DNA of 64,000 nt from Catenovulum agarivorans DS-2. Lineage in GTDB: Bacteria; Pseudomonadota; Gammaproteobacteria; Enterobacterales; Alteromonadaceae. The notes under the pieces were generated by a model. It made no database searches. It saw only the letters and a list, made by a program, of their open reading frames with translations, and was not told the DNA's origin. Positions 35,881 to 38,557 of the stretch are shown in pieces; the stretch's first letter is position 1, and each line of letters begins with the position of its first letter. The stretch lies in assembly GCF_000568405.1 (NCBI RefSeq), contig NZ_ARZY01000001.1, forward strand, positions 124,001 to 188,000, written 5' to 3'. Both the position numbers and the translations under genes were made by a program.

Positions 35881-37510
35881 TTAGATTTTATTTGTATTCT
35901 GTTGCTCATTCGATGCAATCATTTGATTAATTGAATCTTTGATTAAATATAAAAATAGCAGACTTGGTATCACCATAACAGAGGTCAAGACAAAGAATAT
36001 TGCCCAATTGCCTTCTAGCCAGTCGACAACAACACCAGAATAAGAACCAAGGAGTGTCCGTCCCAAAGTACCTAAAGAAGCCATCAGCGCATATTGGCTT
36101 GCTGTAAATGACTTATTGCATAAAACTGATAACAGAGCGACAAACGCGACTGAGCCCCATGCAGAGGTAAATCCGTCAACAATTACAGTAAAAGCAAACA
36201 GTGCTTTGTTAGGTCCAGCCATTGCCATAGCTGCAAATAGCAGATTACTTGCAGACATTGCAATACCACCGATGAATAACCCTTTGAAAATACCAAATCG
36301 AATAGTGAAAACACTGCCAATAAGTGAAAATATAATGGTAACTGACCAGTTAATCATTTTAGAGTAGGTTGCGATATCCGAATTGCTAAAACCTAACTCT
36401 TTATAAAAGACGATAGACATGCGCCCCAAATAAGCTTCACCGAGCTTAAATAGAAAGATAAATAGCAATAAACTTAATGCTAATTTAAAGCCATTGCGCG
36501 AGAAAAACTCTTGAATAGGCGCAACCATAGTTGTTAGTAACCAAGCTAACATGTGGTTTAACGCACCACTAGGCTGTGATGGCGCTATATCGGCGAACTT
36601 TGTTGTATTGGCGATGGAGTTGAGTTTACTCAACAACATGACTAACATGCATATAATGACACCAATAAGCACACTAACGCTGGCAAGTGGCGGCAGCCAT
36701 AAAGCGCGGCAGCCATAAAGCGTTGTTAGGCCATCCAGGGTAACCAAAATTTGCATATAACACTAAACCAATAATTGACAGCAACATTATTGGAAACAGT
36801 AACTTGATATGCCCAATGTTTTGCATGGACATTTGATACTGGTTTTGAATTGAAGATTGCACTTGGTTACGATTGGTCATCGGCTCTTGTGCGAACAAGG
36901 TATTAAGCATTAACACCGCCATCACGATAGCCAAAAATAAGTATGCTTGTTGCCAGCCAATACCTGCATGGTCAACCAAATAAAACGGAATCGCACCAAT
37001 GCCAGCATAGCCAGTCCACCAACCAGAGGTGGCCATAGCTGAACCAGACGCCATATAGTTACTGTCTTTATCTTGGAGCAAATCAATTCGATAAGCATCA
37101 ATTGCGATGTCTTGGGTGGCTCCAGACAAAGCAAGCAAAAAACCTATTAATGCGATGCTAGATAAATCTTGTTGCATTGATGTTTGACTGAGCTGAAATG
37201 TTAACAAGACTAACAGGCACTGAGTTAAAAATATCCAACTTCGGCGTTGACCGAGTTTGGCCGTAATGATATATAGTTTGACTCTATCGACTAACGGTGA
37301 CCATAAAAAGTTGATACTATAGGCAACAAATATTAAACCAAATAAGCCTATGCTGCTGCGCGAGAAGCCTTCCTCCTTCAACCAACTGCTCATTGCTGAA
37401 CCAATTAGGACCCACGGAAACCCACTGGCGATACCAAAAAAGAAGATTGTGATCAGTCTGCGGTCTTTAAAGTAATTTAAACTGGTTTTGAGTGTTTGGT
37501 TAGATGTCAT
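35881..37510 (-). pseudogene. AmpG-like MFS permease gene, frameshifted by a 16-bp duplication
   Basis: Two overlapping frames make one transporter. The first (start 37510) has the N-terminal six spans, with IASGFPWVLIGSAMSSWLKEEG, WSPLVDRV and GATQDIAIDAYRIDLL, and resembles AmpG, which imports anhydro-muropeptides for cell-wall recycling. It runs into a stop at 36674 after NNALWLPRFMAAATCQR. The second frame continues from PLASVSVLIGV through the remaining spans to 35881. Removing one copy of the 16-bp repeat at 36690-36721 joins them as NNALWLP-PLASVSV with no other change, giving 537 residues. As written the gene encodes a truncated protein; a sequencing error or a revertible mutation are both possible. 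Confidence 0.85.
36690..36721. repeat. 16-bp perfect tandem duplication
   Basis: GCGGCAGCCATAAAGC occurs twice head to tail (36690-36705 and 36706-36721). Sixteen is not a multiple of three, so the second copy shifts the reading frame of the ampG-like gene. Confidence 0.95.
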
Positions 37511-37594: not shown

Positions 37595-37963
37595 TTACGG
37601 GCGAACGCCAATGCAATCCATTGGGAAACCGCCTTGGCCATTGATAAAGTCAGCACAGATGCTTAATTCATCTATTAATAATGTATCCGTAAGCAGGGTG
37701 TCTTTTGGCCAAAAACTAATTTGGTGAATAAGGTGCCAAAAAACGCGTTCTTTTTCAGAATAACTCTCGTTTTGTTCAACTTTGACTTGTGACCATTCTT
37801 CGAGCATATCCCAAATAAAGATATCAAGTTCAGCATATTCAACTTGTCGGGCTAAAAACGCCCGAACGTAAAAAACAAGTTGTTTAGATTTTATTTCAAT
37901 GAATTGCTCGACTTTCACAACACTCGGCTCATTAGCTGCTATTTCTTTGAGTATAGACGGCAA
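37595..37963 (-). CDS. Hypothetical protein, 122 aa
   Basis: A 122-residue soluble protein, acidic and probably helical, with no signal peptide. It would start at a TTG directly after the TAA stop of the cyclophilin gene; no better ATG exists in the conserved-looking part, so translational coupling to that gene is likely. The central stretch (VFYVRAFLARQVEYAELDIFIWDMLEEW) and the later EKERVFWHLIHQISFW are the most ordered-looking parts. The C-terminal GGFPMDCIGVRP holds one of two cysteines. I do not recognise the family. Confidence 0.6.
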   Translation of the reverse strand: MPSILKEIAANEPSVVKVEQFIEIKSKQLVFYVRAFLARQVEYAELDIFIWDMLEEWSQVKVEQNESYSEKERVFWHLIHQISFWPKDTLLTDTLLIDELSICADFINGQGGFPMDCIGVRP

Positions 37964-38557
37964 TTAGCTCTGTGGTAGTAAAGTTGCAACTTTTATTACG
38001 ATTGGTTTAACTGGCACATCAGCAGAACCGAATTCTGAAGAATAGTGCGTTTCTGATTGTGCGATTTTTTCGATCACTTCTTCGCCACTTTCTACATAAC
38101 CAAACACGGTATAACCCCAATCTCTGCCTGGATTTAGATTGTTGTTGTCGCTTAGATTAAAATAAAACTGACGTATTGCTGAATGTGGGTCACTCATTCG
38201 AGCCATGGCAATTGACATGCGATCGTTTTTTAATCCATTGCCACTTTCGTTAAATATTTTGTCACCCAAAGGACGTTCATTAAATTCAGTATCATATCCA
38301 CCACCTTGAGCAACAAAGCCAGGTACAACACGATGAAAAATTGTATTGTTATATTCACCCTTGACCACGTAGCTAATAAAGTTTTTTACCGTAATCGGTG
38401 CTTTACGACGATTCAACTCCAAAACGATTGTGCCTAAATTGGTTTCAAGTTGTACTCTTGGGTATAAATTAGAGTCCTGAGTATCAACTTGTTTAGCACA
38501 AATACTAAAAGACAAGCTGAGTGTGATTATCAGTAAGCTAAAAAGTTTTTTCATCAT
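37964..38557 (-). CDS. ppiA: Periplasmic cyclophilin-type peptidyl-prolyl isomerase
   Basis: A 197-residue cyclophilin with a signal peptide (residues 1-21, ending SFSICA). The catalytic core shows VQLETNLGTIVLELNRRKAPITVKNF, TIFHRVVPGFVAQGGGYD (active-site Arg and Phe), IAMARMSDPHSAIRQFYFNLSDN and GYTVFGYVESGEEVIEKIA. This layout is that of bacterial PpiA, which speeds proline isomerisation during folding in the periplasm. The hypothetical gene follows with no gap. PpiA and PpiB differ mainly by export, and the signal peptide favours PpiA. Confidence 0.9.
   Translation of the reverse strand: MMKKLFSLLIITLSLSFSICAKQVDTQDSNLYPRVQLETNLGTIVLELNRRKAPITVKNFISYVVKGEYNNTIFHRVVPGFVAQGGGYDTEFNERPLGDKIFNESGNGLKNDRMSIAMARMSDPHSAIRQFYFNLSDNNNLNPGRDWGYTVFGYVESGEEVIEKIAQSETHYSSEFGSADVPVKPIVIKVATLLPQS

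What the first reader, a model, noticed from the sequence alone, without database searches (positions are those of the whole stretch)
36690..36721. 16-bp tandem duplication breaks an AmpG-like permease gene
GCGGCAGCCATAAAGC is present twice in tandem inside the ampG-like gene. Deleting one copy in silico fuses the two frames (NNALWLP to PLASVSV) without any other change, so this one event is the only lesson. AmpG imports peptidoglycan fragments; its loss usually leaks muropeptides and changes beta-lactamase induction. A perfect tandem repeat can revert by slippage, so the gene may switch on and off, or the duplication may be an assembly or PCR artefact.
Basis: partly seen in the sequence, partly recalled or inferred. 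Interest (0 to 1): 0.7.

Follow-up and report, generated by a model that had tools for sequence, protein, structure and literature searches.

The report
16-base repeat splitting AmpG, probably artefact
A marine bacterium's only gene for recycling cell-wall fragments reads as cut in two by a doubled 16-base stretch, but the same 16-base doubling turns up at two unrelated places in the same short-read genome, so it is most likely a flaw in how the genome was pieced together rather than a genetic switch.

Summary
An exact 16-bp tandem duplication (window 36690-36721, plus one matching base at 36722) splits a minus-strand AmpG-like permease gene (35881-37510). Relatives have one frame across the site, and none of the 18 spacings measured there breaks the frame. 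The assembly is almost certainly Catenovulum sp. DS-2 (143 contigs, N50 93,862). This gene is its only match to the AmpG family; the AmpD, AmpE, NagZ and Mpl genes are open.

The biological interpretation is doubtful. In 2,856,289 bases of the same assembly I found two more perfect two-copy duplications of exactly 16 bp. One splits a Mu-type prophage portal gene; one lies in the terminator after a 5S rRNA gene. The only other non-tRNA perfect units over 12 bp were one of 15 and one of 18 bp, both inside open frames. One length at three unrelated sites, in an Illumina GAIIx assembly whose gaps were closed afterwards, points to a fixed-length overlap left in at joins. No reads were available, so a real loss-of-function mutation is not excluded.

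Nothing found supports a phase switch. The beta-lactamase link is not supported: the only PF00144 protein is not AmpC, and in Shewanella oneidensis (same order) loss of AmpG raises basal beta-lactamase.

The parts
36690..36705 (.). first copy of the 16-bp unit GCGGCAGCCATAAAGC
36706..36721 (.). second copy of the 16-bp unit (base 36722 also continues the match)
36674..37510 (-). N-terminal piece of the AmpG-like permease gene, 278 aa, ends at TAG 36676-36674
   Evidence: TIGR00901 positions 2-203, 201.3 bits
35881..36756 (-). C-terminal piece of the AmpG-like permease gene, open from a stop at 36765; first ATG 36756; no Shine-Dalgarno-like sequence before any of the 7 candidate starts between 36756 and 36633
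   Evidence: TIGR00901 positions 176-416, 188.7 bits
37595..37963 (-). conserved 122-aa gene of unknown family upstream of the permease, intact
   Evidence: 89% identical to YM01; no NCBIfam family
37964..38557 (-). peptidylprolyl isomerase (cyclophilin) gene, intact, same order in YM01

Best explanation
The second 16-bp copy is most likely an assembly artefact. When two pieces of the short-read assembly of Catenovulum sp. DS-2 were joined, an overlap of fixed length (16 bases) was left in twice. The living strain would then carry one copy and an ordinary intact ampG-like gene. Shown: the duplication, the open gene in the relatives examined, and three duplications of exactly 16 bp and two copies at unrelated sites in this one assembly. 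Inferred: that a joining step produced them; the assembler and k-mer length are not stated in the paper.
For: The tally over 2,856,289 bases of the assembly (62%) gives, for perfect tandem units of 13-100 bp, one of 15 bp (2.27 copies, inside an open frame), three of 16 bp (2.0-2.06 copies), one of 18 bp (2.33 copies, inside an open frame) and two tRNA arrays of 88 and 97 bp (frames). The two other 16-bp cases are on contig C18. L212:202-233 lies just after a 5S rRNA gene (L212:69-182), in its terminator. L212:16019-16050 splits a Mu-type portal gene: its second piece is Portal_Mu at 342.8 bits, and its two pieces align to adjoining parts of the portal protein of Shewanella phage MuM16-1. If lengths were uniform from 13 to 30, three of five would share a length in about 3% of draws (a post-hoc test). 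Two of the three break a reading frame, whereas the 15- and 18-bp units lie in open frames. The assembly is Illumina GAIIx, 300-bp library, with gaps closed afterwards and GapFiller in the reference list (PMC3945506, whole text). It is identified by 143 contigs, 4,572,425 against 4,572,520 bases, and contig C16 at exactly the published N50 of 93,862. No N was present in the 1,215,001 bases counted or the 800,000 counted, so gaps there, if any, had been filled.
Against: No reads could be mapped. The longest repeated word at the window site is 17 bases (16 at the others), so a de Bruijn graph with k of 18 or more would not itself create or collapse the repeat; the error must come from a later joining step, which I could not locate. 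The length test is post hoc and rests on three cases, two of them on one contig. The control is weak: 823,479 bases of relatives hold no unit of 16, but at the DS-2 rate only about 0.9 would be expected there. That control does hold seven units of 14-22 bp, four of them of 22 bp and near-identical in Pseudoalteromonas loci, so real tandem units, and a shared length through ancestry, do occur. Each unit occurs only as its own pair in the 2,837,288 bases searched, at ordinary local GC (0.39-0.47), so nothing else marks the window site as a join. 38% of the assembly was not examined.
Confidence: 0.66

Rival explanations
1. A real, recent loss-of-function mutation. A 16-bp tandem duplication arose in strain DS-2 (in nature or in culture) and shifts the frame in the loop between two helices. 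The strain makes a dead N-terminal half, cannot import anhydromuropeptides by AmpG and sheds them. The repeat could be lost again by slippage, as any perfect tandem repeat can, without being a dedicated switch.
For: The gene is the only TIGR00901 match in G000. Its two halves keep 80% and 84% protein identity to YM01, and their identity to C. sediminis is about that of the YM01 gene (0.602 against 0.622 for the N half, 0.745 against 0.756 for the C half), so any break is recent. The break falls in the least certain loop of the predicted structure, YM01 residues 256-267. A 154-fold Illumina assembly is usually right for a 33-base tract (coverage; the rest inference).
Against: Two further duplications of exactly 16 bp in the same assembly. 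AmpD, AmpE, NagZ and Mpl are open. Only one base of homology flanks the duplication (33 = 2 x 16 + 1), so there is no pre-existing short repeat to slip on. Synonymous sites are saturated or nearly so against YM01, so the recency argument is weak.
Confidence: 0.25
2. A fixed-length biological process in this strain makes 16-bp duplications, for example a mobile element that leaves a 16-bp target-site footprint when it excises.
For: Three perfect 16-bp duplications in one genome, one inside a prophage gene.
Against: I saw no element remnant between or beside the copies (sequences; no systematic search for insertion sequences was made). The three units share no motif at a fixed offset (my reading of the units; not tested statistically). 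I know of no element family with a 16-bp footprint as a rule (recalled). The window unit occurs nowhere else in the genome without a mismatch.
Confidence: 0.05
3. A phase-variable switch: copy number of the repeat turns AmpG on and off.
For: A perfect tandem repeat that shifts the frame can in principle change copy number. Phase variation by tandem repeats is reported in Mycobacterium tuberculosis (PMC12817950, passages).
Against: Only two copies. No 16-bp tandem unit is in the 80 named loci of relatives, and all 55 other genomes with a match have an open frame of at least 415 codons at the best match. There is no population evidence, and the same 16-bp pattern occurs in a terminator and a phage gene.
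Confidence: 0.02
4. A working two-chain transporter: both halves are translated and assemble. The GTG at 36672 lies one base after the stop of the first piece and could allow re-initiation; the break falls between helices.
For: Stop at 36676-36674, GTG at 36672-36670; the break is in a loop.
Against: No Shine-Dalgarno-like sequence before any of the 7 candidate starts listed. None of the 55 other matching genomes has a split gene at the best match.
Confidence: 0.02

Closest known systems
AmpG family muropeptide MFS transporter (TIGR00901); open orthologue in Catenovulum agarivorans YM01 (NZ_JH767523.1, L032)
   Same: Same gene order (cyclophilin gene, 122-aa gene, permease), 80% and 84% protein identity in the two halves. 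The model of the YM01 protein has as its five best Foldseek matches the solved AmpG structures 9j9z, 8zbb, 9c3f, 8zgz and 8zke.
   Different: The window gene is out of frame, with 220 bases between the anchors where YM01 has 204. The YM01 long form scores below the cut-offs of the two AmpG equivalog models.
Frame-shifting errors in draft genomes joined or gap-filled from short reads
   Same: Perfect two-copy duplication, one length at unrelated sites, otherwise undamaged gene.
   Different: Not confirmed by reads. In the listings of two searches I saw no paper on this 16-base signature; I opened none of those papers.
Phase-variable tandem repeats (for example M. tuberculosis promoter repeats, PMC12817950, passages)
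   Same: A perfect tandem repeat that could change copy number.
   Different: Two copies only, not found in relatives, no variation shown.

Membership tests
AmpG family muropeptide transporter (TIGR00901) | whole-protein score over the curated cut-off (350 bits) | tested here: not met
   The two window pieces score 201.3 and 188.7 bits apart (201.2 and 188.1). The YM01 orthologue scores 383.3 and passes. So the gene descends from the family, but neither product as read is a full member.
AmpG equivalogs NF008238 / NF008867 | score over 756 / 656 bits | tested here: not met
   YM01 orthologue 212.5 and 250.0 bits; hence 'AmpG-like', not proven AmpG
AmpG | fold of the solved AmpG transporters | tested here: met
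   Tested for the YM01 orthologue only: AlphaFold2 model pLDDT 83.3, pTM 0.83; the five best PDB matches are AmpG, TM-score by query length 0.56-0.64
AmpG | uptake of anhydromuropeptides | not testable with these tools
   needs an assay
AmpR-AmpC inducible beta-lactamase pathway | a class C beta-lactamase in the genome | tested here: not met
   one PF00144 protein; 82.6 bits against 415 for class C, 86.8 against 266 for AmpH. A weak PF13354 match exists on C49 (30.4 bits), not classified. AmpR was not searched for.
phase-variable (contingency) locus | repeat conserved or copy number variable between strains or within a population | tested here: inconclusive
   No 16-bp tandem unit in the 80 named loci of relatives. 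No second strain of this species was found, and variation within DS-2 could not be tested.
assembly artefact | same length signature at unrelated sites of one assembly | tested here: met
   3 perfect two-copy 16-bp units in 2,856,289 bases; none of 13, 14, 17 or 19-87 bp; three cases only, post hoc
assembly artefact | reads carry one copy | not testable with these tools
   reads not held

The most novel reading that the evidence does not exclude
DS-2 harbours an active process that leaves exact 16-bp duplications (for instance an element excising cleanly after making 16-bp target duplications), and it has knocked out the only AmpG-like gene and a prophage portal gene and altered a 5S terminator.
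Probability: 0.04. Interest if true: 0.55.

Novelty: not a real feature. Interest (0 to 1): 0.12.

Why it matters
If the artefact reading holds, at least two genes of a public genome (the only AmpG-like permease and a prophage portal gene) are wrongly broken. Anyone who infers loss of peptidoglycan recycling in this strain would be misled, and the 16-bp signature gives a quick way to look for other faulty joins. If the duplication were real, DS-2 would be a natural AmpG-minus strain with AmpD, AmpE, NagZ and Mpl kept.

Tried and rejected
Programmed frameshifting: the duplication moves the downstream frame so that a +1 shift would be needed; the AAATTTT heptamer upstream fits only a -1 shift, and I saw no run of A or T long enough for transcriptional slippage (my reading of the sequence printed). 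Rejected.

Re-initiation or a two-chain transporter: 7 candidate starts listed, none with a Shine-Dalgarno-like sequence. Kept as a minor rival.

Hairpin as a common cause of the three duplications: an earlier count said that all three lie in GC-rich inverted repeats. That is wrong: one search found arms around the duplication only at the terminator site, none at the window site, and only a 7-base pair 101 bases apart at the portal site; the window strand folds no better than shuffles (z -0.18). Dropped.

Early artefact check: in the first 400,000 bases and in 1,279,001 bases including the window I found no other 16-bp case. The two further cases appeared in the next 800,000 bases, and none in the last stretches (counted).

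dN/dS as a clock: synonymous differences are saturated or close to it against YM01 and C. sediminis, so it could not date the break.

Relatives at DNA level around the site: 2 of the 59 other genomes matched, over 49 and 62 bases; I found no second genome of this species. Paper searches on short tandem duplications and on gap-closing errors gave listings in which I saw nothing on this signature; of those papers I looked only at passages of PMC12817950.

Rows dropped before counts: L049 and L050 gave no spacing because an anchor motif was not found. Units of 9-12 bp (54 of them) were tallied but not interpreted. The relatives' control is a mixed set of loci around the permease gene, not random genome. 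One search's weaker rows were not inspected one by one.

Full report
What is there. The window holds an exact 16-bp tandem duplication at 36690-36721, with one more matching base, on a minus-strand AmpG-like gene. Chance does not give it: no perfect tandem unit of 10-60 bp arose in 20 simulated windows. The gene is read as a 278-aa N piece and a C piece in another frame. Each piece matches its part of TIGR00901, the AmpG family of muropeptide transporters.

The gene in relatives. Of 60 genomes searched with the N piece, 56 including the window's own have a match, and the 55 others all have an open frame of at least 415 codons at the best match. The 20 named long-form relatives that I aligned each have one open frame of 531-560 codons. 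The distance between two conserved anchors around the break is a multiple of three (201-231 bases) in the 18 of 20 where both anchors were found; in the window it is 220, against 204 in the closest, Catenovulum agarivorans YM01. The neighbouring genes compared are intact and in the same order in YM01. In the predicted structure of the YM01 protein the break falls in the loop 256-267 between helices 214-255 and 268-298, its least certain part. That model's five best PDB matches are solved AmpG structures.

The genome. G000 has 4,572,425 bases in 143 contigs, and its contig C16 has 93,862 bases. The announcement of Catenovulum sp. DS-2 gives 4,572,520 bp, 143 contigs and N50 93,862 (PMC3945506, whole text). 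[quoted passage not shown] I found no second strain of this species.

Function if it were broken. This is the only TIGR00901 gene found in DS-2. Each of the 7 other genomes of the same genus has one member over the cut-off, long in two and short in five. Mpl, NagZ, AmpD and AmpE are open. The only PF00144 protein is not a class C beta-lactamase by its cut-off; a weak PF13354 match was not classified. In Shewanella oneidensis, loss of AmpG raises basal blaA expression (PMC5786531, passages), so the usual statement about induction cannot be carried over. Some bacteria that lack AmpG use an ABC importer instead (PMC9790009, passages); I did not look for one here.

Why I think it is an artefact. 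I counted perfect tandem repeats with units of 9-100 bp in 2,856,289 bases of the same assembly. Above 12 bp, tRNA arrays apart, there are five: one of 15 and one of 18 bp, both inside open frames with 2.27 and 2.33 copies, and three of exactly 16 bp with 2.0-2.06 copies. The two new ones are on contig C18. One lies in the terminator behind a 5S rRNA gene, where the YM01 copy of the locus shows a single stem (my reading). The other splits a Mu-type portal gene, whose two pieces align to adjoining parts of a phage portal protein. A mutational process would be expected to give various lengths; one length at three unrelated sites suggests an overlap of fixed length left in at joins. With uniform lengths from 13 to 30, three of five would agree in about 3% of draws, and the test was made after seeing the data. 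The longest repeated word is 16-17 bases, so an ordinary assembly graph with k of 18 or more resolves the tract; the fault would lie in a later joining step. That step is inferred, not seen.

Limits of the control. 823,479 bases of 80 named loci of relatives hold no 16-bp unit, but only about 0.9 would be expected there at the DS-2 rate, so this says little. The control does hold seven units of 14-22 bp, so real tandem units occur in these bacteria; none of them has exactly two copies.

What speaks for a real mutation. Both halves are well conserved, and no second lesion is present, as expected for a very recent break as much as for an artefact. Coverage was high. I keep this at 0.25.

Switching. 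Phase variation by tandem repeats exists (PMC12817950, passages), but here nothing beyond the presence of a repeat supports it.

Verdict. Observation confirmed; interpretation partly supported; most likely not a real feature of the strain. Read mapping or one PCR would settle it.

Noticed in passing
L212:16019-16050 (G000 contig C18): Exact 16-bp tandem duplication splits a Mu-type portal gene (start L212:15889) of a prophage; the terminase-like gene upstream is open.
   Followed up: yes
L212:202-233 (G000 contig C18): Exact 16-bp tandem duplication of the loop, 3' arm and T tract of the terminator behind a 5S rRNA gene.
   Followed up: partly
L043:5907-5939: In-frame 15-bp tandem duplication (2.2 copies) in the same permease gene in a Colwellia MAG, in the variable region around the extra helices; that region seems to tolerate small duplications.
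   Followed up: no
G000-G007, TIGR00901 loci (L115-L123): The 8 genomes of this genus each carry one AmpG-family gene of either a long type (551-555 codons in G003 and G004; also the window's) or a short type (432-452 codons in G001, G002, G005, G006, G007), 35-40% identical to the window's N piece; replacement within the genus is my inference.
   Followed up: no
window 37595-37963: A 122-aa gene next to the permease is the best conserved of the neighbours compared (89% to YM01) but matches no NCBIfam family.
   Followed up: no
L170:19688-19961 and L194:2602-2857: Tandem tRNA-Lys and tRNA-Gln arrays with perfect 97-bp and 88-bp units, nearly three copies each.
   Followed up: partly
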